The notes under the pieces are model-generated. The model had not been told where the DNA came from and did no database searches. It saw only the letters and a program-made list of their open reading frames with translations. Source: an uncultured Mycoplasmatota bacterium (GTDB lineage: Bacteria > Bacillota_I > Bacilli_A > RF39 > UBA660). Taken from it: a stretch of 50,334 bases of DNA. Made by a program: the position numbers and the translations under genes. Where the stretch lies: assembly GCA_948466735.1 (NCBI GenBank), contig CAOKBR010000004.1:1-50334 (forward strand), read 5' to 3'. Position 1 is the stretch's first letter. Each line of letters starts with the position of its first letter. Shown in pieces: positions 37,439-48,367 of the stretch.

Positions 37439-37455
37439 AAATGTATCAATCTTTT

Positions 37456-37484
37456 TTGCAATTTTATATGAATTTTGCTATAAT
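37456..37484 (+). promoter_or_regulatory. Promoter of the second polysaccharide locus
   Basis: TTGCAA (37456-37461), 17-bp spacer, TATAAT (37479-37484), 20 bp before the chosen start. Confidence 0.78.
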
Positions 37485-37503
37485 GACCTTGGAAGGTGTA
37501 GCA

Positions 37504-38247
37504 ATGAAAAAAACGAATGAATTAGCAATTGAAGTAAGTCATGTTTATAAAACATTTAAGCAATATTATGATAAAGCCAATACCCTAAAAGAAAAATTGT
37601 TGTTCTTTAAAAAAAGAAGTGGAAATGATTGCTTAAAAATATTAAATGATATCAATATTACCATTAGTAAAGGTGAATCTGTGGCATTAATTGGTACTAA
37701 TGGTAGTGGAAAAAGTACACTATTAAAATTGATGACTAAGATAATTTATCCTAATTCTGGAAAGATAATTGTCAATGGAAAAGTAGCTTCCTTACTAGAG
37801 TTAGGAGCAGGGTTTCATCCTGATTTCTCAGGGCGAGAAAACATTTATTTTAATGCATCTATTTTTGGTATGACAAAACAACAAATTGATAATAGAATTG
37901 ATGATATTATTGCTTTTTCAGAGCTAGAAGATTTTATTGATAATCCCGTTAGGACTTATTCATCAGGAATGTACATGCGCCTAGCATTTGCAGTAGCGAT
38001 TAATGTTTCAGCTGATATTTTATTAATTGATGAAATTTTAGCTGTAGGGGATCAACACTTTCAAGAAAAATGTTTTGCTAAGATTAAGCAGTTAAAAAAG
38101 GAAGGAAAAACCATTGTTTTTGTATCCCATTCGATGGAACAAGTCAACGAATTTTGTGATCGAGCAGTATGGTTATATAAAGGTAGTGTAAAAAAAATTG
38201 GCGCAACAAAAGAAGTATGCGATGAATATTTGAAAGTATGTGGGTGA
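37504..38247 (+). CDS. Polysaccharide ABC exporter, ATP-binding subunit (Wzt/TagH type)
   Basis: 247 residues from ATG 37504 (GGAAGGTG upstream; the longer frame to 37441 starts inside the promoter). Walker A ALIGTNGSGKSTLL near 61-74, Q-loop region with ASLLELGAGFHPDFSGREN, the hallmark of polysaccharide and teichoic-acid exporters, signature YSSGMYMRLAFAVA near 157-170, Walker B ILLIDEILAVGD near 177. It powers export of undecaprenyl-linked polymer across the membrane together with the next gene. The C-terminal chain-length domain of some Wzt proteins is absent. Confidence 0.93.
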   Translation: MKKTNELAIEVSHVYKTFKQYYDKANTLKEKLLFFKKRSGNDCLKILNDINITISKGESVALIGTNGSGKSTLLKLMTKIIYPNSGKIIVNGKVASLLELGAGFHPDFSGRENIYFNASIFGMTKQQIDNRIDDIIAFSELEDFIDNPVRTYSSGMYMRLAFAVAINVSADILLIDEILAVGDQHFQEKCFAKIKQLKKEGKTIVFVSHSMEQVNEFCDRAVWLYKGSVKKIGATKEVCDEYLKVCG

Positions 38248-38253
38248 TGGACT

Positions 38254-39027
38254 TTGAAATTAATAAAAGATTTGTATCAATATCGAGAATTATTAAAAAC
38301 GAATATAAAAAAGGAAATTCGGGGAAAATATAAAGGAGCATGGTTAGGGGTTTTATGGTCATTTCTAAATCCTTTATTGATGCTTGCTGTATATGCGATT
38401 ATCTTTCCTTTAATTTTAAAAAATGATATTCCCCATTACACGATGTTTTTGTTTACTGCCATGATGCCATGGAACTTCTTTACTTCAACTGTTAATGGAT
38501 GTTCTTATTCGATTATTGCATCAGGAAATATTATTAAAAAAGTATATTTTCCAAGAGAGATTCTTCCCATTTCGATAGTATTATCCAATACGGTAAATTT
38601 TTTAATTACTTGTATCATCATGGTCGTGTTTCTTCTATTATCAGGAGTAGGAATTACACCTTATATTTTGCTATTTCCAGTAATTTTAATTATTCAAGAA
38701 GTATTACTTTTTGGAATATCTTTTATCTTATCAGCAGTAACAGTGTATGCTAGAGATGTAGAACACATTGTAAATGTTGGTTTAATGGCTCTATTTTATG
38801 GAACACCTATAGTATACTCTTTATCGATGATTCCAATAGAGTTTAGAAAATTTATCTTTTTAAATCCAATGACATCGATTATCGAAGGATATCGTTCGAT
38901 TTTGTTTTATCATACATGGCCAAACTTTATGCATTTAGGAATCGTATTTATCGTATCTATTTTAATCTTTATTGTAGGACTATTTATTTTTAGAAAATTA
39001 GAAAAAGGATTTGCGGAAGAACTATAA
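38254..39027 (+). CDS. Polysaccharide ABC exporter, permease subunit (Wzm/TagG type)
   Basis: 257 residues, TTG start at 38254 six bases after the ATPase gene. N-terminal YRELLKTNIKKEIRGKYKGAWLGVLW is the conserved amphipathic start of ABC-2 polysaccharide permeases, followed by six membrane helices (about 33-55, 63-85, 104-130, 140-162, 168-190, 225-247) and the LNPMTSIIEGYRSI motif near 205. It forms the channel with the Wzt subunit. Confidence 0.93.
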   Translation: MKLIKDLYQYRELLKTNIKKEIRGKYKGAWLGVLWSFLNPLLMLAVYAIIFPLILKNDIPHYTMFLFTAMMPWNFFTSTVNGCSYSIIASGNIIKKVYFPREILPISIVLSNTVNFLITCIIMVVFLLLSGVGITPYILLFPVILIIQEVLLFGISFILSAVTVYARDVEHIVNVGLMALFYGTPIVYSLSMIPIEFRKFIFLNPMTSIIEGYRSILFYHTWPNFMHLGIVFIVSILIFIVGLFIFRKLEKGFAEEL

Positions 39028-39051: not shown

Positions 39052-40206
39052 ATGAACTATTTTGTGAAGCTGGGAGAATCTTATAGTTATTTATTGTACG
39101 ATTTTGCAAGATGGTTAATCGATGAACAAATTCGCCTTGGGAATGATACACTATATTTTTGTACACGTGAAGGAGAATTTTTTAAACAAGTTGTAGATTC
39201 TATTAATACAACATCATTGAAAACGGTATTACTTGAAGTTAGTAGAATGTCTACGTTTGCAGCTTCATTGGAAACTCCTTCCATAAAATCATTTGAGCGA
39301 CTTTGGAGACAGTATACTCAAACAATGGAAGCATTTTTTAAGACATTAGATTTTTCAATAGAAAAAGTAGAAAAAATTTTAAACAAGTATAACTTAAATC
39401 GATATACTGTTATACAACTAGAAAACGATTCTATTAGACAATTTTTTTTAGATAAAACATTAGAAAATTTGTTAACACAGCACATTATAAAGAAAAAAGG
39501 GGAGCTTTTAACATACTTAGATAGTGTTGGTATTAATCAAAACAACAAGACAATAGCAATCGTTGACATTGGATGGAGAGGGAGTATTCAAGATAATTTA
39601 GCCCATCTATTATCCAAAACTACTATTTTAGGATATTATTTTGGATTAGCAAAGTTTATAAATGAACAACCACCTAATACAAAAAAAATAGGATATCTAA
39701 ACCAATTATCGTGTGGGGTAAAATTTTTAACTTATGTGCCTATATGGGAAATGCTATTTAATAGTCCAAATGGTAGCGTTATTTCTTATCAAATATCTCC
39801 GTTAAAAGTTAACAAAAAAATAAAAATAGAAGAAAATGCAGTATTTGAAAAATGTACTAGATATGTCCAGCAAGGAATATTAAAAAAAGTGAATTTATAT
39901 CAAAATGAAGAGAAAAATCCAAAAAGAATTATTAAAATATTAAAAAAAATTTATTTACATCCCAACAAAAAACTTGTACGGATGTACTTTACCTTAGTTC
40001 ATAATGAAGAATTTGGTAAAGGTAAAGACTTGGAAATATCTTTAGAAAAAATCCCGCTAAAATTAGTTCTTAGCAGCGTCATTTTTAAAAAAAAGCGAAT
40101 ATTATTAAAAAATATTTTATTTCAGTCTACTTGGCTATATGGGTTGTTAACAAATGAAAATTTATCTTTTGTTAATTACTATTTTGATTATAGATTATTT
40201 AAATAA
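39052..40206 (+). CDS. Stand-alone copy of the C-terminal domain of COG5610-type proteins
   Basis: 384 residues, no membrane helix. The first 180 residues match, in order and spacing, the C-terminal domain of the next gene: YFCTREGEF with Arg39-Glu40, VSR with Arg65, and VDIGWRGS with Asp172, against LARDAYL, VSR and FDIGYSGR there (Arg-to-SR spacing 26 versus 28, Arg-to-Asp 133 versus 134). The charged residues at fixed distances suggest an active site. Such domains occur in polysaccharide loci of many bacteria, usually fused to a HAD or glycosyltransferase; their reaction is not known to me. The C-terminal 200 residues are basic and helical. AGGAG precedes ATG 39052. Confidence 0.65.
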   Translation: MNYFVKLGESYSYLLYDFARWLIDEQIRLGNDTLYFCTREGEFFKQVVDSINTTSLKTVLLEVSRMSTFAASLETPSIKSFERLWRQYTQTMEAFFKTLDFSIEKVEKILNKYNLNRYTVIQLENDSIRQFFLDKTLENLLTQHIIKKKGELLTYLDSVGINQNNKTIAIVDIGWRGSIQDNLAHLLSKTTILGYYFGLAKFINEQPPNTKKIGYLNQLSCGVKFLTYVPIWEMLFNSPNGSVISYQISPLKVNKKIKIEENAVFEKCTRYVQQGILKKVNLYQNEEKNPKRIIKILKKIYLHPNKKLVRMYFTLVHNEEFGKGKDLEISLEKIPLKLVLSSVIFKKKRILLKNILFQSTWLYGLLTNENLSFVNYYFDYRLFK

Positions 40207-40255
40207 TATTGTAAAGAAAGAAGAAACAACTTAAGTTTTGAAGAGGAAATTTAAA

Positions 40256-43200
40256 ATGTTAAAGAAAATATCTATTATTATCCCTGTTTATAACACGGAA
40301 AAATATATCCGTAAGTGTTTAGAAAGTATAATACAGCAAACTTATTCGAATTTAGAAATTATTGTAGTAGATGATTGTACTAAGGATCATGCGATTGAAA
40401 TTGTAGAAGAGTATCGGAAAAATGATAATCGTATAAAAATAATTCACAATGCTAAAAATTTAGGATTATTTCATACTAGAATAGAAGGAATAAAACAAGC
40501 GACAGGAGATTATATTGCTTTTGTGGATAGTGATGATTTTCTTAATTTAGATTATTATCGTATTTTAATAGATAAAATGGAAGATACTAATGCTGATATT
40601 GTCTATTCTACTACAGTTATAACATATGAACACAAACGTTATATTCATCAATTAGCAGAAGAAAATTTACCAAATCAGTTAGAAAATGAAAAAATTTTTG
40701 AATCATTATTAAAACAAAATGGTTTGAATTTTTCCTGGCATACTGTTTGGAACAAATTATATAAAATGGATTTATGGAAAAAAACATTGAATGAATATGA
40801 AAAAATACAAGGTCATCTTATTCAAACGGAAGATATAGCATTTACTATTCCCATTTTCTATTTTGCAAAAAAAATTGTAAAAGCAGAACATGCGTATCAC
40901 TTTTATGTAAAAAATGAGAATGCTTCTACAAATAATACGACTAGTGAAAAGATATATAAAAATTTATCAGATATTATCAAAGTATTCAATTTTATAAATG
41001 AATTTATAAAAGAAAAAGGTTTAGATAAGTATTTAAATGATATAGAAGCTTGGAAAAAGCAATTATCGATAAGTTATTATAAGCAAATAAAAAAAATAAA
41101 AGATAATGCTAATGCATATAAAAAACTAGAGGAGTTAGACAAGGATTATAAAAATCAGGAACGACCTATGGATCAATATTACTATAGTATACAAGTCCCA
41201 TTTAATGATACTTTAGATAAAGTGAAAAATAAAATTATTGATTCAGGTTGTAAAGTGGTAAGTTTTGATATTTTTGATACTTTATTATTACGTCCTTTTG
41301 CGAGTCCTACTGATTTATTTATTTTAATGAATGACTATTTTCGTCAATTGTTAAAACAAAACACACCAACACGTTTTTCTACAATTAGAGTAGAAGCAGA
41401 ACAATTGGCAAGAGATAAGGCTTATAAAGAGAATAAAGAAGAAATTACTATTGATGAAATTTATCAGCAGTTACACGAAAAATATTCAATTGATGAAAAA
41501 ATTTGTAAACAATTAAAGGAAAAAGAAATAAACTTAGAAATTAAATATAGTAAACCACGAAAAACAGCAAGAGAATTATACCAATTAGCAAAATACTTAA
41601 ATAAACAAGTGTGCTTTACTTCAGATATGTATTTAACTGAAGATACAATTAGAAAAATGCTTTCTAAAAATGGTTATGCTATGGACAATTTGTATTTATC
41701 TTGTGTACAGCAAAAAACAAAATCAAAAGGAACGTTGTATGATTTAGTTGTTAAAGATTTAAATGTTTCTTATAAAGAAATAGTGCATATTGGAGATAAT
41801 TATCAAAGTGATTATACAATGTCTAACAAAAAGGGAATGATAGGAATCTACTTTCCAAAAACGTATGATGTTTTTCGCAATCAAACAGAGGTTGAGACCA
41901 ATGATTGTGGAAATATTTTACATGACATTTATTTTACACCTCATGATAGCAATATGTCTTATTCATTTTTAGGTATTAGGACAATGGAAGCAATGGTTGC
42001 TAATAAATTTTTTGATAATCCATATGTTTCTTTTCACCCAGAAAGTGATTTTAATGGAAACCCTTATTTTATTGGATATTATGCTTTAGGAATGCATGTT
42101 TATGGCGTGGTGGAGTATTTAAACAAGTTAGTAGAAGAAAATAATTATGATACTATTGCTTTTTTAGCAAGAGATGCTTATTTAATAAAAAATTGTTTTG
42201 ATTTATATCAAAAAGATAATAAAAAATTGAATAGTGTTTATAGTTATGTATCAAGAAAATCATTGATGCCGTTGGTAATTCAAAATGAATTAGATTGGTT
42301 TAGAGTTCCTTACTGTGGTATAACGATTCAAAAATATAATCCTATTAGAATGTATAAAATGTTTGAAGTTATACTAGATGAATTGGATATTGCAACTACG
42401 TGTAAAAAGTTAAAGATAGATGCTAATGCCTATTTTTCTAATTCGTTAGAGTATGAATCTTTTGTAAGAAAGGTATTGATTCCTCATACTAATATAGATA
42501 AATTAAAAGATTATAGAAAAAGAATGAGGCAATACTTTATGGGAGAATATAAAGGGAATACTTTAGCTTTCGATATTGGATATAGTGGTAGACCTGAGTA
42601 TATTCTCTCAAAATTATTAGAGAAACCAATATCAGCTTGTTTTATTCATATTAATGATGATCAGGCAATGGAATTTGAAAAACTTGGAAATTTTAAGATA
42701 CATTCTTTTTATGATTTTAAGCCAACTATTACAGGAGGAATAAGAGAACACTATTTTTCTTCAACAGACGGTAGTTGTACTGGATATGACTTAGGGGAAA
42801 AAGAAATAAAACCAATTTTTAGAGAAAATAATATGGATTATACACAATTGCAAGTAATTCATTTATTACAGAAAGGCTGTATTGATTTTATGCAAGATAT
42901 GGTAAATACTTTTGAAAAAATAAATTTGCCATATCGAAGAAGTGATATATCTTTACCATTAGAATATTATACACATTATTCAAAACCAGTAGATAAACAA
43001 ATTTTTTCTACAACAAGTTTTGAAGATGATATGAATATTGGTGTTGATAGTATTGAAAAATGGTGGCCAACTTACGTGGTGAATGGAAGAAAAGATTTGT
43101 TACAAGATAAAATTAAAATTAAATCGCGTTATAAGCGAGCATTATATTATTTATTGTTTGAGCCATATCAATTTAAAGATAAGGTATATAATAACTTGGA

Positions 43201-43297
43201 TCATAACGGAATATGCTTTAAATTGACTAAGAGAACATATAGAATATGTCGAGGAATAAAGGAATTTTTTATAAGAGGAAACAAAGATGAAAGGTAG
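40256..43297 (+). CDS. Three-domain protein: GT2 glycosyltransferase, HAD hydrolase and COG5610 C-terminal domain
   Basis: 1013 residues from ATG 40256 (GAGG nine bases upstream; the TTG at 40238 lacks a site). Residues 3-225: GT2 with IIIPVYNTEKYIRKC, VDDCTKD near 38 and VDSDD near 90. Residues about 332-550: HAD fold with the nucleophile motif SFDIFDTLLL (Asp338), FTSDMYL near 454 (motif II) and GDNYQSDY near 513 (motif IV). Residues about 570-860: the domain shared with the previous gene, with LARDAYL, VSRKS and FDIGYSGR. The tail is basic. A sugar transferase joined to a phosphatase-like enzyme suggests synthesis of a modified polymer unit, for example phosphate-containing teichoic material (inference). 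It overlaps the next gene by eleven bases. Confidence 0.85.
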   Translation: MLKKISIIIPVYNTEKYIRKCLESIIQQTYSNLEIIVVDDCTKDHAIEIVEEYRKNDNRIKIIHNAKNLGLFHTRIEGIKQATGDYIAFVDSDDFLNLDYYRILIDKMEDTNADIVYSTTVITYEHKRYIHQLAEENLPNQLENEKIFESLLKQNGLNFSWHTVWNKLYKMDLWKKTLNEYEKIQGHLIQTEDIAFTIPIFYFAKKIVKAEHAYHFYVKNENASTNNTTSEKIYKNLSDIIKVFNFINEFIKEKGLDKYLNDIEAWKKQLSISYYKQIKKIKDNANAYKKLEELDKDYKNQERPMDQYYYSIQVPFNDTLDKVKNKIIDSGCKVVSFDIFDTLLLRPFASPTDLFILMNDYFRQLLKQNTPTRFSTIRVEAEQLARDKAYKENKEEITIDEIYQQLHEKYSIDEKICKQLKEKEINLEIKYSKPRKTARELYQLAKYLNKQVCFTSDMYLTEDTIRKMLSKNGYAMDNLYLSCVQQKTKSKGTLYDLVVKDLNVSYKEIVHIGDNYQSDYTMSNKKGMIGIYFPKTYDVFRNQTEVETNDCGNILHDIYFTPHDSNMSYSFLGIRTMEAMVANKFFDNPYVSFHPESDFNGNPYFIGYYALGMHVYGVVEYLNKLVEENNYDTIAFLARDAYLIKNCFDLYQKDNKKLNSVYSYVSRKSLMPLVIQNELDWFRVPYCGITIQKYNPIRMYKMFEVILDELDIATTCKKLKIDANAYFSNSLEYESFVRKVLIPHTNIDKLKDYRKRMRQYFMGEYKGNTLAFDIGYSGRPEYILSKLLEKPISACFIHINDDQAMEFEKLGNFKIHSFYDFKPTITGGIREHYFSSTDGSCTGYDLGEKEIKPIFRENNMDYTQLQVIHLLQKGCIDFMQDMVNTFEKINLPYRRSDISLPLEYYTHYSKPVDKQIFSTTSFEDDMNIGVDSIEKWWPTYVVNGRKDLLQDKIKIKSRYKRALYYLLFEPYQFKDKVYNNLDHNGICFKLTKRTYRICRGIKEFFIRGNKDER

Positions 43298-44765
43298 TAC
43301 AAAGCGCCATTTAATTGTATATATTATGCTGTTAATGGTATATTTAATTATTTGTTCTAATTTTTTAAGATTACATTATGCACAAGATACTTATAGTTTG
43401 ATTGAAAATGGTTATCAAGTATATGCGAAACATTTCTTAGTTTCTGGAAGACTAATATCAGCTTCATATTTATATTTATCTTCATTTTTAAATTTATCGA
43501 TAGAAACAAATTTGCGTATTTCCTATTTCTTGGGTGTTATCTTTATGTCAACAGCAGTATTTGTTTTATATTATTCAATTAAATCAAGAATGGAAAAATT
43601 GCCATTTTTTAAAGAGATTTTCTTGCTTTTTGCATCAAGTTTAGTAGTATATCAATTTTGTTCTATTGAGCTACTTTTGTTTGCAGAAAGTGCATCTATG
43701 GCTTTTGCTATGCTTATGCTTGTTCTTAGTGCAACATTATTTACTTCAAAAAAGAAATATCATTATTTATTCTCTTTTTTTACTGTTATATTAGCGGGAA
43801 TTGGGTATCAAGGTGTTCTTAGCTTATTTGTTCCTTTAGTGTTTGTATTGTTACTTTTAGATAAGGAAAGAAATTTTAAAAAGACATTTATAAAATTATT
43901 TACTTCAGGAGTATTTTATGCTGTTTCATATTTGATTGTTTTGCTAATGATTAAGTTTTTTAGTAATTATTTCAATATCATTGGACGTGAGGTTTTTGTA
44001 CCAAATTTATTGTATATAATTAAAACATATTTACATTATGGAAAGATATTATTAATTGATGGTATTTACGTTTTGCCTAAGTATTGGTATTCTATTGTAC
44101 TAGTCATTGTTTCTTTAATACTATGTTTGTCGTATTATAAAAATAGAAAATGGTATATTGGAATTTGGAATGTTGCATTTTTAATTGGTATGTGTATCTT
44201 TTTTTCAATATTTCCTCTTATTTCTATGAAAGAAGGAACACAATATGTAGAACCTAGAATTGTCATTTCTTATGGTTCTTGTTTTGGATTGTTGTTTCTT
44301 TATTGGTTAATCAATAGTAAAATTTCTTCTAAAATATTTACATCAATAATGACTAGCATAATGTTTATTGTATTTATTTCTAATGCTATATATTATGTTT
44401 ATGGTTCTTCTCAAATGTTATTAACTAACGCTATAGATGAAATAGAAGCTAATTTAATCATTAAAGAGGTAGAAAGGTATGAAAATCTAAATAATACAAG
44501 AGTGGAAAATATTGTCATTCTTTTTGACAAAAATCCTTGTTATTATGCAAAAAATGTTTCACATTTTAAGGGTTTGACTTATCGTTCGTTAGCACAAAAT
44601 TGGGCTGTACCTGGTGTGCTTATTCAATATACGGGTAGAAAATTTAACTGGATTTCGACAAAAGAAGAAGATAAATTATTATTTATGGGTCAAGACGAGG
44701 GTTATTTTAATCCCTCTACACAGTTGAAAATGGTAGGTAACACTTTGTATTATTTAGTATATTAA
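43287..44765 (+). CDS. GtrII-like multi-helix glycosyl transferase (GT-C)
   Basis: 492 residues, about 11 hydrophobic helices. The first extracellular loop has AQDTYSLIENGYQVYAKHF and then VSGRL, the D...SGR pattern of the GtrII/GT-C group that adds sugars outside the membrane from polyprenyl-phosphate donors. The C-terminal 110 residues form a soluble domain outside (RYENLNNTRVENIV onwards). ATG 43287 follows AGAGGAA and lies inside the previous gene. It likely decorates the exported polymer; the sugar is unknown. Confidence 0.7.
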   Translation: MKGSTKRHLIVYIMLLMVYLIICSNFLRLHYAQDTYSLIENGYQVYAKHFLVSGRLISASYLYLSSFLNLSIETNLRISYFLGVIFMSTAVFVLYYSIKSRMEKLPFFKEIFLLFASSLVVYQFCSIELLLFAESASMAFAMLMLVLSATLFTSKKKYHYLFSFFTVILAGIGYQGVLSLFVPLVFVLLLLDKERNFKKTFIKLFTSGVFYAVSYLIVLLMIKFFSNYFNIIGREVFVPNLLYIIKTYLHYGKILLIDGIYVLPKYWYSIVLVIVSLILCLSYYKNRKWYIGIWNVAFLIGMCIFFSIFPLISMKEGTQYVEPRIVISYGSCFGLLFLYWLINSKISSKIFTSIMTSIMFIVFISNAIYYVYGSSQMLLTNAIDEIEANLIIKEVERYENLNNTRVENIVILFDKNPCYYAKNVSHFKGLTYRSLAQNWAVPGVLIQYTGRKFNWISTKEEDKLLFMGQDEGYFNPSTQLKMVGNTLYYLVY

Positions 44766-44779
44766 AGGAAGTGAAAAAA

Positions 44780-46015
44780 ATGAAACGTAAATTTTTAATA
44801 AGCACAATTTTTATTGTAAGTGTGTTAATTTTTATTGCATCAGTTGTTATAAAGCAGGAGGAAAAATTTAAAATTCAGAAAATGAAAGAAAAAGAAAAAC
44901 ATTTAATAACATTAAAAGAAAAATATCAACCATATGTAAAAACACTTAAGAATGCTAAACTTTATCAAAAAGATGGAGAAACTTATCAAGAAAAGGGATT
45001 ATTAAGTACTTTATGGGAATTATCTTTAGAACAAGATTTTATTTATGATGAAAATACTTTATATTTTCCATTAAAAGATCTTCCTTATTATATTTCATAC
45101 CAGGACATTGAGCCAATAGAAAATATGACATTAGTTGATCAAAGATATAAAAATTACATTCCTTTTGATTACAATATAGTAACTGATAACAAAACAACTT
45201 TTTATCAAGATAATCAAGTTGTTTTGGAAATTAGTGAAGGAATAAATTTACCTTTAATTATTAATGATGATGATTATTATTATGTAGAGTATGCTAATCA
45301 CTTATTAGGAATTAAAAAAGATGAAGCTAAACAAGTAGAGCATCATAATAGTGATTTAGAAAAAGCAACAGCAATTGCAACGTTAAATTATCATTTCTTT
45401 TATAATGATACTAGTGAAGCATGTAATCAATCGATTTGTATTCATACTGATTTATTTAAAGCACACTTAGATTATTTAAAAAATAATAACTTTTATGATA
45501 TGAAAATGCGTGACATGGAACTATTTGTAGAAGGGAAGATTAATTTACCAAAAAAGTCAGTTTTAATTACTATTGATGATGGTTGGTTATCTGATTTAGG
45601 TAGGCAAGTTTTAACTGAATATAAAATGCACGCTACAATGTTTTTAATTACGCTAACTTATGAAATGGAATGGTTTGAAAATGAGTATATTGAAGTGCAT
45701 TCTCACAGTGATAATTTACATTACACAGGAGAGTGTTCTGGAGGACAAGGTGGTCCTATTCGTTGCTTACCTCGTGAAATGATTTTAGCGGATTTAAAAA
45801 CAACTAGAGAAAAGTTAAAACAAACGACTTACTTTTGTTATCCGTTTTATGAATATAATCAATATGCGGTAGATTTATTAAAAGAAGCAGGATTTACGAT
45901 GGCATTTATTGGTGGAGGTAGAAAGGTAAAAATTGGAGATAATAAAATGTTACTACCACGATATGCAATTCAAAATTATACTTCTGTAAATGCATTAGCT
46001 AATATGGTAAATTAG
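44780..46015 (+). CDS. Membrane-anchored polysaccharide deacetylase (NodB homology)
   Basis: 411 residues from ATG 44780 (GGAAG upstream; GTG at 44771 is less likely). One N-terminal helix (about 6-25), a coiled-coil-like Lys/Glu stretch, an SH3-like region (about 50-190), then the NodB domain (about 195-405): VLITIDDGW (Asp pair), a metal-binding HSHSDNLH, YFCYPFYEY and LLPRYAI motifs. These enzymes remove N-acetyl groups from extracellular glycans in a divalent-metal-dependent reaction. The anchor places the domain outside. Within the locus it probably modifies the exported polymer or peptidoglycan. Confidence 0.88.
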   Translation: MKRKFLISTIFIVSVLIFIASVVIKQEEKFKIQKMKEKEKHLITLKEKYQPYVKTLKNAKLYQKDGETYQEKGLLSTLWELSLEQDFIYDENTLYFPLKDLPYYISYQDIEPIENMTLVDQRYKNYIPFDYNIVTDNKTTFYQDNQVVLEISEGINLPLIINDDDYYYVEYANHLLGIKKDEAKQVEHHNSDLEKATAIATLNYHFFYNDTSEACNQSICIHTDLFKAHLDYLKNNNFYDMKMRDMELFVEGKINLPKKSVLITIDDGWLSDLGRQVLTEYKMHATMFLITLTYEMEWFENEYIEVHSHSDNLHYTGECSGGQGGPIRCLPREMILADLKTTREKLKQTTYFCYPFYEYNQYAVDLLKEAGFTMAFIGGGRKVKIGDNKMLLPRYAIQNYTSVNALANMVN

Positions 46016-46123: not shown

Positions 46124-47125
46124 ATGAAAGAATTATCCTTAATTGCGTTGCAAGGTGCAAATTCATTGGGAAAGTCAATAAAATTAGTTTTGGATAGGGA
46201 ACAAATTTTATCCAATTTGGTATTACCGATAGAAACTCGTTTTGGAAATGGTGAAGGGAAAGTCATTTTAAAGGATGACGTTAGAAATAAAGATGTTTTT
46301 ATTCTTTGCGATATTGGTAATTATGATTGTACTTATGATTTGTATGGAGAAAAGAATCATATGAGTCCAGATGATCATTATATGAATTTAAAAAGAACAA
46401 TATCTGCTATGAGAGGGAATGCAAAAAAAATTCACGTTATTATGCCTTTATTATACGCTTCTAGACAGCATAAAAGAAAAGGAAACGAGTCATTGGATTG
46501 TGCAATGGCTCTACAAGAATTACGTAACTTAGGAGTAAATAGAATTATTACAATTGATGCACATGATCCAGGTGTGCAAAATGCAATTCCATGTATGTCT
46601 TTTGAAAATTATTATCCGACTAAGATTATGCTAGAAGAAGTACTAAAAAATCACAATTTTGATTTGCCGCAATTGCTAGTAATTAGTCCAGATACTGGGG
46701 CTATGGATCGTGCTAGATACTATGCAGACTTATTGAAATGTGATGTTGGAATGTTTTATAAACGTAGAGATTTGAGTAAAGTTGTCAATGGAAAAAATCC
46801 TATTGTTGCACATGAATACTTAGGAAAAGAAGTTAACGGGAAAAGTGTGTTAGTGGTTGATGATATGATAGCATCGGGAGAATCTATGTTGGAAGTTGCT
46901 AAAGAATTAAAGAAAAAAGGTTGTAAAGAAGTATATTTAATAGCAACTTTTGGTTTGTTTACAAAAGGTATTGCTGTTTTTGAAAAAGCTTACCAAGATA
47001 AGATTTTTGATGGTCTTTATATTACGAATTTAACTTACATAAAAAAGAAGTTTATGAATTTGTCTTGGTTACATGTAGTAGATTGTAGTAGTTTTTTAAA
47101 AGACATCATTATGGAACTAATATAA
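46124..47125 (+). CDS. prs: Ribose-phosphate diphosphokinase (PRPP synthetase)
   Basis: 333 residues. Two phosphoribosyl folds: N-terminal half with DDHYMNLKRTISAMRGNAKK and MPLLYASRQHKR (ATP/ribose-5-phosphate side), RIITIDAHDPGVQNAI (the VTVDLHA-type metal-binding region, Asp-Ala-His), ISPDTGAMDRA and the PRPP loop VLVVDDMIASGES near 245-257. It makes PRPP from ribose 5-phosphate and ATP. The sequence is divergent from the usual bacterial Prs (the N-terminal GSxSxxLA motif is replaced by QGANSLGKS), which suggests a specialised or second copy; its place in a polysaccharide locus may mean PRPP supply for a ribosyl or phosphoribosyl donor. Confidence 0.85.
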   Translation: MKELSLIALQGANSLGKSIKLVLDREQILSNLVLPIETRFGNGEGKVILKDDVRNKDVFILCDIGNYDCTYDLYGEKNHMSPDDHYMNLKRTISAMRGNAKKIHVIMPLLYASRQHKRKGNESLDCAMALQELRNLGVNRIITIDAHDPGVQNAIPCMSFENYYPTKIMLEEVLKNHNFDLPQLLVISPDTGAMDRARYYADLLKCDVGMFYKRRDLSKVVNGKNPIVAHEYLGKEVNGKSVLVVDDMIASGESMLEVAKELKKKGCKEVYLIATFGLFTKGIAVFEKAYQDKIFDGLYITNLTYIKKKFMNLSWLHVVDCSSFLKDIIMELI

Positions 47126-47140: not shown

Positions 47141-47614
47141 ATGAAAAAAAAGGTAATGTTTATCTCTTCTACTGGAGGACATTTTTCAGAAATTATGCAA
47201 TTAAGTCCAATGTTTAAAGATTATGATTATTCTATTGTGACAGAAAAGACGAAAATATCAGCTTCATTAAAAGAAAAGTATCAAAATAAAATTGACTTTC
47301 TATTTTATGGTACGAAAGATCATGTGTTAGTGTATCCTTTTAAATTAATATTAAATTGTTTTAAAAGTCTATTTCTATTTTTTAAAATTCGTCCTAGTTA
47401 TATTATTACAACAGGAGCTCATACCGCTGGACCGATGTGTTGTATTGGAAAACTACTAGGAGCAAAAATTATTTATATTGAAACATTTGCCAATATTGAA
47501 ACTAAGACCATAACTGGACGCTTAATTTATAAATTTGCTGATTTATTTTTAGTGCAGTGGGAGAGTATGTTAACACTTTATCCAAAGGCAATTTGCAAAG
47601 GTTGGATTTATTGA
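47141..47614 (+). CDS. Alg14/PssD-like membrane subunit of a UDP-sugar glycosyltransferase
   Basis: 157 residues with the family start VMFISSTGGHFSEIMQLSP, a hydrophobic membrane-binding stretch (about 68-86), ITTGAHTAGPMC near 90 and the typical end VQWESMLTLYPKAICKGWIY. Alg14-type proteins anchor and activate a catalytic Alg13/PssE partner to add a sugar to a lipid-linked acceptor. The partner gene that normally follows directly is not present; the next gene is unrelated. AGAGGAG lies upstream of ATG 47141, 15 bases after prs, so the two are probably cotranscribed. Confidence 0.88.
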   Translation: MKKKVMFISSTGGHFSEIMQLSPMFKDYDYSIVTEKTKISASLKEKYQNKIDFLFYGTKDHVLVYPFKLILNCFKSLFLFFKIRPSYIITTGAHTAGPMCCIGKLLGAKIIYIETFANIETKTITGRLIYKFADLFLVQWESMLTLYPKAICKGWIY

Positions 47615-47666: not shown

Positions 47667-48356
47667 ATGAAAGAGTCTAAATCAATGAATGATAAATATG
47701 TAGACGAATATATTACAGAAGGACAAGAAGAAAAAGAAAAAAATAGAATATGGTTATTATTAATGTTTTTTGTCATCATGTTAGTAGTAGCAACCATTGG
47801 TTGTAGTTACTCTATCTATATTTATACAAAAGAAGGAGGTAATAGCGATGTTGAAACAGGAACGGTATCTTTAACGTATACTGAAGGAAATACAGGTATT
47901 GCCTTAACAGATGCGAAACCAATGAACGATGAAGTAGGAAAAAATTTAATGGGAACCAATCAAAAATTTGATTTTACCATCCAAGCAACGCTATCTACTA
48001 AAATGAATGTCGATTATGAAATCTCAGCAGTAAAACAAAATGGGAATAGTTCACTACCTCAGTTAAGAGAAGATGAGGTAAAACTTTATTTAGAGCGGGC
48101 GATTGATCCAGATAATTCTTATCATGCGACACTTAATCCAACACATTTTACTCCTTTAGATAATCCATCTGATATAGGAACTCCTGGTGGCTCTATGATA
48201 TTAGAAAAAGGACAATTTACCGAAGAGGGAACTACGATTCATCGATATCGCTTAAGAATGTGGATTGATGAAAATGCTTATGTTGATTCTACACCAAAAC
48301 GTTTTGCTGTAAGAGTAAATGTATATGCTAAACATGTACCAAAAGAGGAAGTTTAA
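47667..48356 (+). CDS. Membrane-anchored beta-rich surface protein, unknown function
   Basis: 229 residues. A charged cytoplasmic head of about 27 residues, one membrane helix (about 28-52, WLLLMFFVIMLVVATIGCSY), then about 175 extracellular residues, beta-strand-like and rich in Thr/Asn/Asp (ETGTVSLTYTEGN, then QKFDFTIQATLST, RYRLRMWIDENAY). The GTVSLTYTEG...PM.DEVG order right after the helix is faintly like TasA/camelysin matrix proteins, but the family is not recognised with confidence. GGAGG lies five bases before ATG 47667. Single gene with its own terminator. Confidence 0.6.
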   Translation: MKESKSMNDKYVDEYITEGQEEKEKNRIWLLLMFFVIMLVVATIGCSYSIYIYTKEGGNSDVETGTVSLTYTEGNTGIALTDAKPMNDEVGKNLMGTNQKFDFTIQATLSTKMNVDYEISAVKQNGNSSLPQLREDEVKLYLERAIDPDNSYHATLNPTHFTPLDNPSDIGTPGGSMILEKGQFTEEGTTIHRYRLRMWIDENAYVDSTPKRFAVRVNVYAKHVPKEEV

Positions 48357-48367
48357 TCCTCTTTTTT
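48343..48367 (+). terminator. Rho-independent terminator of the surface protein gene
   Basis: AAGAGGA pairs with TCCTCTT, 7-nt loop spanning the stop codon, T run. Confidence 0.85.

What the first reader, a model, noticed from the sequence alone, without database searches (positions are those of the whole stretch)
39052..43297. Two adjacent genes share an uncharacterised domain with fixed R / SR / DIG spacing
The stand-alone 384-residue protein and the C-terminal part of the 1013-residue GT2-HAD protein carry the same motif series: (T/A)R(E/D), VSR and DIG(W/Y)xG, with spacings of 26/28 and 133/134 residues. Conserved Arg and Asp residues at constant distance in otherwise diverged sequences suggest a catalytic site of unknown chemistry, acting in a locus with an ABC polymer exporter. 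The stand-alone copy lacks the HAD domain, so the shared domain can work without it.
Basis: partly seen in the sequence, partly recalled or inferred. Interest (0 to 1): 0.6.

Follow-up and report, generated by a model that had tools for sequence, protein, structure and literature searches.

The report
Paired ribose-adding enzymes for surface sugar
The two genes carry a known but thinly annotated enzyme domain that very probably takes ribose from the cell's nucleotide precursor PRPP and adds it to an exported surface sugar chain; what is less usual is that one copy lacks the phosphatase that the reaction needs and probably borrows its neighbour's.

Summary
The motif series is real. A profile built without either protein family still finds both window proteins (E 2.5e-63 and 3.3e-25; 0 of 1000 shuffles). 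The domain is not of unknown chemistry. It is the glycan phosphoribosyltransferase domain (gPRT, called CriT in H. influenzae) of PRPP-dependent ribofuranosyltransferases. The stand-alone model superposes on the T. composti enzyme 7shg (Z 30.4, rmsd 2.5, 311 residues) and on Bcs3 (Z 24.4); the second domain does so too (Z 26.3 and 24.4). The named residues coincide with Bcs3's PRPP site (R679/D680, S707/R708, E818; plus E874). The second protein is GT2-phosphatase-gPRT; its HAD matches the Bcs3 phosphatase (E 2.4e-17). The gene cluster encodes the genome's only detected PRPP synthetase. Fixed spacing is not a family trait. New here: of 98 loci, 11 of 15 with a stand-alone gPRT also hold a phosphatase-bearing gPRT, against 3 of 83 others with two such (p 4e-9), suggesting that two transferases share one phosphatase in trans. 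Against tight PRPP coupling: several gPRT-bearing relatives show no PRPP synthetase. Chemistry is inferred, not assayed. Known kind, moderately interesting.

The parts
39052..40206 (+). stand-alone gPRT (384 aa): predicted PRPP-dependent glycan phosphoribosyltransferase without a phosphatase domain; R39, E40, S64, R65, Y155, D172, G174, E233 conserved
   Evidence: phmmer to 7shg E 1.5e-15; AF2 model pLDDT 85.3; 7shg Z 30.4, Bcs3 Z 24.4; residues
40256..43297 (+). three-domain protein GT2 - HAD phosphatase (PRP) - gPRT (1013 aa from ATG; open frame from TTG 40238 gives 1019)
   Evidence: Pfam GT2 at residues 12-149 and Hydrolase 339-528 of the 1019-aa frame; gPRT 592-1011
41228..41917 (+). stretch holding the HAD/PRP domain (profile match to residues 331-553); D344 nucleophile, S462, K495, D520, D525
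   Evidence: Bcs3 CrpP E 2.4e-17, 7shg E 7e-07; motif residues
41900..43294 (+). C-terminal gPRT domain of the three-domain protein; R645, D646, S672, R673, D779, E837
   Evidence: AF2 model pLDDT 74.5; 7shg Z 26.3, Bcs3 8a0m Z 24.4; profile without its family E 3.3e-25
46124..47125 (+). PRPP synthetase gene in the same run of genes; presumed donor supply
   Evidence: NF005299 438.6 bits over cut-off 327; only PF13793 and only PF00156 match in the genome assembly
37441..38247 (+). ABC transporter ATPase (Wzt/TagH-like)
   Evidence: PF00005 3e-22; PRK13545 7.8e-68, below its equivalog cut-off
38254..39027 (+). ABC-2 polysaccharide exporter permease (Wzm/TagG-like)
   Evidence: PF01061 5.8e-19
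43287..44765 (+). GtrII-like membrane glycosyltransferase (492 aa)
   Evidence: PF14264 2.1e-19
44771..46015 (+). polysaccharide deacetylase-family protein (414 aa)
   Evidence: PF01522 1.1e-11
47141..47614 (+). PssD/Cps14F (Alg14-like) glycosyltransferase subunit
   Evidence: NF041549 167.9 bits over cut-off 110; PF08660 7.9e-17

Best explanation
Both genes encode PRPP-dependent ribofuranosyl transfer to a glycan that is then exported by the ABC transporter encoded just upstream. Each gPRT domain binds PRPP with the loop-1 R-E/D and the loop-2 S-R, holds the ribose with an acid pair (E40 and D172 in the stand-alone; D646 and D779 in the fused copy), activates an acceptor hydroxyl with the conserved glutamate (E233; E837), and transfers 5-phospho-ribofuranose, expected to be beta-linked, to the growing chain with loss of pyrophosphate. 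The HAD domain of the three-domain protein then removes the 5-phosphate (nucleophile D344), and its GT2 domain adds the alternating sugar. The two gPRTs come from different branches of the family, so they probably make two different ribosyl linkages, and the single phosphatase probably serves both, in trans for the stand-alone enzyme. Shown by computation: homology, fold, active-site residues, gene order, co-occurrence. Inferred: donor, linkage, acceptors, sharing of the phosphatase, link to the local PRPP synthetase.
For: Sequence to 7shg E 1.5e-15 for the stand-alone alone; profile to 7shg 9.1e-66 and Bcs3 5.6e-20. Folds: Z 30.4/24.4 and 26.3/24.4. Residue mapping to Bcs3 R679/D680, S707/R708, E818, E874 (counted by hand from the printed alignments); D680A and E818A reduce Bcs3 activity, R708 is placed at the ribose ring, E874 is the hypothesised base (PMC10299916, passages). 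All 116 gPRT ORFs of the survey keep R, E/D, S, R, Y, D, G, E where they are aligned. HAD to CrpP 2.4e-17, with catalytic residues in place. Cj1432 of C. jejuni has the same order GT - phosphatase - gPRT and was assayed with PRPP (PMC12096443, passages). Partner rule 11 of 15 versus 3 of 83. Bcs3 pieces complement in trans. PRPP synthetase in the cluster is the only one in the assembly.
Against: No biochemistry and no glycan structure. Sharing of the phosphatase is inferred from gene neighbourhood; 4 of 15 stand-alone loci (Chromatiaceae) show no phosphatase-bearing gPRT. Co-location of gPRT and PRPP synthetase was seen only in this genus and in one Saccharibacteria locus. Over the family, gPRT and PRPP synthetase do not co-occur more than chance (8 of 15 versus 55 of 130, p 0.43), and 9 gPRT-bearing relatives have no PRPP synthetase over cut-off. 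The model of the fused domain is of middling confidence, with most of its C-terminal 90 residues under pLDDT 50.
Confidence: 0.8

Rival explanations
1. The stand-alone gPRT is a priming or transition transferase: it puts a single ribose on the lipid-linked start of the chain, and the three-domain protein alone polymerises.
For: Transition transferases separate from the polymerase are known in capsule systems (PMC11666461, abstract and passages; there they are glycerol-phosphate enzymes). The two gPRTs lie in distant branches of the tree, which fits two acceptors. A single-domain enzyme beside a multi-domain polymerase is the layout expected for a primer enzyme.
Against: No direct evidence. In L062, L067, L075 and L136 the stand-alone copy lies 0.9-4.5 kb from its partner. 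A primer residue also needs its 5-phosphate removed if the chain grows from O5.
Confidence: 0.3
2. The stand-alone gPRT leaves its ribose phosphorylated: it adds 5-phosphoribosyl groups as a charged decoration or cap, so it needs no phosphatase.
For: It has no HAD domain; 4 of 15 stand-alone loci have no phosphatase-bearing gPRT in the stretch examined.
Against: 11 of 15 do have one, 7 of them directly downstream within 50 bases or overlapping on the same strand. The phosphatase is an independent catalytic unit that works in trans in Bcs3.
Confidence: 0.15
3. The domain has a new catalytic chemistry.
For: No Pfam or NCBIfam model covers it at a meaningful score.
Against: Fold and every named residue match solved and assayed PRPP-dependent ribosyl transferases.
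Confidence: 0.03
4. The fold and site are kept but the donor is not PRPP in this lineage; another ribose donor is used.
For: Nine relatives with gPRT genes have no PRPP synthetase over cut-off, no PhnN over cut-off, and gPRT presence does not track PRPP synthetase presence.
Against: The window's own genome has a PRPP synthetase inside the cluster, and the PRPP-site residues are intact.
Confidence: 0.1

Closest known systems
Thermobacillus composti dual-domain ribofuranosyltransferase (PDB 7shg; Kelly et al. 2022, not held, known here through citing papers and recall)
   Same: gPRT fold (Z 30.4 and 26.3), R-E/D, S-R and D-I/V-G sites, HAD phosphatase partner
   Different: 7shg is phosphatase-gPRT in one chain; here one gPRT stands alone and the other is fused behind GT2 and phosphatase
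Bcs3 of H. influenzae type b (CroT-CrpP-CriT; PDB 8a0c, 8a0m; PMC10299916)
   Same: phosphatase then gPRT in one multi-enzyme polymerase, ABC-exported polymer, same active-site residues
   Different: Bcs3 has a TagF-like ribitol-phosphate transferase and an SH3b domain; the window protein has a GT2 domain instead, and a second, separate gPRT
Cj1432 of Campylobacter jejuni HS:2 (PMC12096443)
   Same: order GT - HAD phosphatase - gPRT, about 1030 residues, PRPP donor shown by assay
   Different: its N-terminal GT is family GT4 (glucuronic acid), not GT2; no stand-alone partner is mentioned in the passages read
Klebsiella O4 and O7 ribofuranosyltransferases (PMC11231755)
   Same: gPRT plus PRP, ABC-transporter-dependent glycan
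   Different: dual-domain only; PRPP synthetase is chromosomal and not in the locus
PPPRS/DPPRS of Citrobacter ORF15 and M. tuberculosis Rv3806c (PMC11127046)
   Same: PRPP as donor, HAD-type PRP in ORF15
   Different: UbiA-type membrane prenyl-phosphate ribosyltransferase, unrelated fold; no UbiA match here

Membership tests
PRPP-dependent glycan phosphoribosyltransferase (gPRT/CriT) | gPRT fold: PRTase-like sheet with helical bundles | tested here: met
   7shg Z 30.4 rmsd 2.5 over 311 and Bcs3 Z 24.4 rmsd 4.9 over 332 for the stand-alone; 7shg Z 26.3 rmsd 3.0 over 324 and 8a0m Z 24.4 rmsd 3.8 over 359 for the fused domain
PRPP-dependent glycan phosphoribosyltransferase (gPRT/CriT) | PRPP-site residues equivalent to Bcs3 R679, D680, R708, E818, and base E874 | tested here: met
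   alignments; 116 survey ORFs; E818 is D in the window proteins, an acid in both cases
PRPP-dependent glycan phosphoribosyltransferase (gPRT/CriT) | HAD-type phosphoribosyl phosphatase (PRP) in the same protein | tested here: met
   three-domain protein only. The stand-alone protein does not have it in cis; the partner gene follows 31 bases downstream
PRPP-dependent glycan phosphoribosyltransferase (gPRT/CriT) | transfer of beta-ribofuranose-5-phosphate from PRPP to a glycan | not testable with these tools
   needs an assay
PRPP-dependent glycan phosphoribosyltransferase (gPRT/CriT) | encoded in a surface-glycan locus | tested here: met
   wzm and wzt directly upstream, GT and deacetylase genes downstream; Wzm relatives in 45 of 100 other survey loci, two of them duplicates
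Classical type I phosphoribosyltransferase (PF00156) | match to the Pribosyltran profile | tested here: not met
   no PF00156 match for either protein; only distant structural likeness to purine PRTases, Z about 5
UbiA-type PPPRS/DPPRS | UbiA prenyltransferase membrane domain | tested here: not met
   no such Pfam match; soluble gPRT fold

The most novel reading that the evidence does not exclude
Stand-alone gPRTs are a recurrent subclass in which several acceptor-specific ribosyl transferases share one phosphatase in trans; and because at least nine relatives that carry gPRT genes show no PRPP synthetase, some of these enzymes draw on an unrecognised PRPP source or use another ribose donor.
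Probability: 0.15. Interest if true: 0.6.

Novelty: new member of a known kind. Interest (0 to 1): 0.33.

Why it matters
It gives a function to a domain that Pfam and NCBIfam leave blank, so ribofuranose-containing surface glycans can be predicted in uncultured small-genome Bacilli and elsewhere. The repeated split of gPRT from its phosphatase makes one question directly testable: can one phosphatase serve two transferases with different acceptors? The genome links the nucleotide precursor PRPP to surface-sugar making in a cell where no other PRPP user of the tested classes was found.

Tried and rejected
Direct BLASTP of the two domains gave nothing significant, so homology was argued through intermediates and leave-out profiles. 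phmmer of the fused domain alone against PDB sequences gave only chance hits. Pfam and NCBIfam gave no usable name for the stand-alone protein (weak hits such as RNA_pol_Rpb4 and ribosomal S1 judged chance). 'Fixed spacing' as a family feature was tested and dropped.

A tight gPRT-PRPP synthetase link was tested and not supported across the family. PhnN as another PRPP route: 0 of 10 genomes over cut-off; the sub-threshold hits are probably guanylate kinases (inference). A degenerate partner gPRT that the stand-alone copy would replace was tested and rejected: partner gPRTs keep their residues. Four Chromatiaceae loci were read for a HAD motif near the stand-alone gene; none was seen by a simple pattern. 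That pattern also missed the HAD of L136, so it is weak evidence. The only RNA and tRNA searches of the window were empty. Consensus promoter and terminator scans were at chance level.

Rows dropped before counts: L057 and L099 (duplicates of L037 and L038), L053 (no gPRT ORF by profile), L068's second ORF (cut by the contig end), L081 (probable frameshift of a fused gene), L117 (left out of the tree only).
Full report
OBSERVATION. The window carries a stand-alone ORF at 39052-40206 (384 aa) and, 31-49 bases downstream, an ORF at 40238-43297 (1019 aa from TTG; 1013 aa from the ATG at 40256). In 40,000 residue shuffles the series never appears.

The kinship of the two domains cannot be seen by pairwise BLASTP (best E 0.02), but each finds the same third-party proteins. 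Both queries hit, for instance, gPRT ORFs of L042, L044, L045, L047 and L049. A profile realigned and built from 14 domains without either window family finds the stand-alone protein at E 2.5e-63 and the fused one at E 3.3e-25; 0 of 1000 shuffled copies score E<=10. The spacing itself is not conserved in the family (R-R 25-36, R-D 124-163 in 115 domains).

IDENTITY. The stand-alone protein alone finds PDB 7shg, the T. composti ribofuranosyl transferase, at E 1.5e-15, and Bcs3 of H. influenzae at 0.0017. A 20-row profile finds them at 9.1e-66 and 5.6e-20 and a second profile led by the fused domain at 5.5e-65 and 5.8e-17. AlphaFold2 models (pLDDT 85.3 and 74.5) match the same two enzymes and nothing else strongly: stand-alone Z 30.4 (rmsd 2.5, 311 residues) to 7shg and 24.4 (rmsd 4.9, 332) to 8a0c; fused domain Z 26.3 (rmsd 3.0, 324) and 24.4 (rmsd 3.8, 359, 8a0m). 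The next rows are at Z about 5-6, some of them purine phosphoribosyltransferases for the stand-alone model.

RESIDUES. Seven columns are invariant in 20 diverse domains: R39, S64, R65, Y155, D172, G174, E233. In the printed alignments R39, S64, R65, D172 and E233 fall on Bcs3 R679 (next to D680), S707, R708, E818 and E874 (positions counted by hand with the construct offset). The Bcs3 paper places loop 1 at 678-680 and R708 at the ribose ring, names D680 and E818 as the functional equivalent of the PRTase acid pair with reduced activity on alanine exchange, and proposes E874 as base (PMC10299916, passages). In the survey of 116 gPRT ORFs the eight positions R, E/D, S, R, Y, D, G, E hold in every aligned case. 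For the 80 genome-contig loci the D and G are partly selected by the search pattern, which contained DIG; the other positions are not.

THE PARTNER PROTEIN. It reads GT2 (12-149), HAD (331-553), gPRT (592-1011). Its HAD matches the phosphatase of Bcs3 at 2.4e-17 and of 7shg at 7e-07, with nucleophile D344 on Bcs3 D386 and K495 on motif III. As in CrpP, the second motif-I acid is missing (F346). These positions are near-invariant in 99 HAD-gPRT proteins. C. jejuni Cj1432 has the same order with a GT4 domain and was assayed: PRPP-dependent ribose-5-phosphate transfer by the C-terminal domain, then dephosphorylation by the middle domain (PMC12096443, passages). Klebsiella O4/O7 enzymes work likewise (PMC11231755, passages). 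An E. coli capsule typing paper also reports a GT99-like Kdo transferase fused to a dual-domain ribofuranosyltransferase-phosphatase (PMC13171606, passages).

SETTING. Upstream are Wzt- and Wzm-like ABC exporter genes; downstream a GtrII-like membrane protein, a deacetylase-family protein, a PRPP synthetase (over its NCBIfam cut-off) and a PssD-type GT subunit. priA- and fmt-type housekeeping genes precede the cluster. The PRPP synthetase is the only PF13793 match and the only PF00156 match in the genome assembly (92.8% complete). No NAPRTase match was found, and the only UPRTase-profile match is a sub-threshold cross-hit on the same PRPP synthetase. So of the PRPP-using classes tested, only the two gPRTs remain. 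Other classes (for example NadC, TrpD, HisG) were not tested, and the assembly is incomplete. The same-genus genome G104 keeps the pair and the PRPP synthetase but shows no relative of the GtrII-like gene.

SURVEY OF ARCHITECTURE. 98 distinct loci with a gPRT ORF were examined: the window, family relatives, and the best 80 of 287 confirmed genome contigs matches. They hold 116 gPRT ORFs, 99 fused to a HAD and 17 not. Dropping one ORF cut by a contig end (L068) and one probable frameshift (L081) leaves 15 loci with a stand-alone gPRT. 11 of these 15 also hold a HAD-bearing gPRT, while 3 of the 83 other loci hold two HAD-bearing gPRTs (Fisher p 3.9e-9; loci are not phylogenetically independent and flanks differ). 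In 7 of the 11 (window, L037, L042, L049, L063, L117, L128) the partner follows directly, within 50 bases or overlapping, on the same strand.

On a tree of 114 rows the stand-alone state needs 8 changes, 6 forced by supported branches; two of the rows are the doubtful L068 and L081, so about four to six independent origins remain. Stand-alone and partner of the window lie in different supported branches, and the window's partner groups with partners from Clostridiaceae and Eubacterium loci. Partner gPRTs are intact, so the stand-alone copy does not replace a dead domain. This favours two linkages served by one phosphatase. In Bcs3, separated phosphatase and transferase pieces were inactive alone and active in trans, and in the dimer the phosphatase faces the other protomer's transferase (PMC10299916, passages). 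That the PRP is tolerant of acceptors is recalled from the abstract of Kelly et al. 2022, which is not held.

RESULTS AGAINST. Four stand-alone genes (L091, L104, L115, L134, all Chromatiaceae) have no HAD-gPRT nearby. Across 145 family genomes only 63 have a PRPP synthetase. Of 15 gPRT-bearing genomes among them 8 have one (one of the 15, G102, was not confirmed by profile, and the match of another, G100, is a short broken piece), against 55 of 130 others (p 0.43). Nine gPRT-bearing genomes, seven of that set and two outside it, have no TIGR01251 match over cut-off. Hence the PRPP link is sound for the window's own genome but unexplained in relatives.

PRINT. Seven searches of the held library listed the papers above and none whose listing describes stand-alone gPRTs paired with a phosphatase-bearing gPRT. 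The Bcs3 paper notes that in E. coli loci domains can be separate polypeptides. The founding paper was not available, so absence from print is not claimed.

VERDICT. A known enzyme family in a new host and a slightly unusual arrangement. Domain identity about 0.95; PRPP-dependent ribosyl transfer about 0.85; shared phosphatase in trans about 0.5.

Noticed in passing
window 46124-47125: The only PRPP synthetase and only PF00156 protein detected in the genome lies in the glycan cluster; no NAPRTase, and no UPRTase beyond a cross-hit on this gene, so PRPP may be made here mainly for the glycan.
   Followed up: partly
family relatives G138, G041, G071, G098, G100, G132, G137, G206, G239: Genomes that carry gPRT genes but no PRPP synthetase over cut-off and no PhnN over cut-off; 82 of 145 family genomes lack PF13793.
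   Followed up: partly
L091, L115, L134, L136 (Chromatiaceae): Stand-alone gPRT genes of 458-499 aa lie near what look like ferritin-type, tRNA nucleotidyltransferase-type and gyrase-type genes (by eye from N-termini) rather than in an obvious glycan locus in L091 and L134.
   Followed up: no
L058 480-1484 and 1563-5129: A Saccharibacteria contig has a 1188-aa HAD-gPRT fusion next to a divergent PRPP synthetase gene; its gPRT groups with that of family relative G251 (99% SH-aLRT), hinting at transfer between phyla.
   Followed up: no
window 43287-44765: GtrII-like gene overlaps the end of the three-domain gene, but no relative was found in the same-genus locus L037 or any other survey locus.
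   Followed up: no
L081 7135-9194: A HAD ORF and a gPRT ORF overlap in different frames while the near-identical L078 is one fused gene; probably a frameshift or sequencing error.
   Followed up: no
window 48341-48365: Terminator-like hairpin at the end of the last gene of the run (47667-48356); the number of such sites in the region is at chance level.
   Followed up: no
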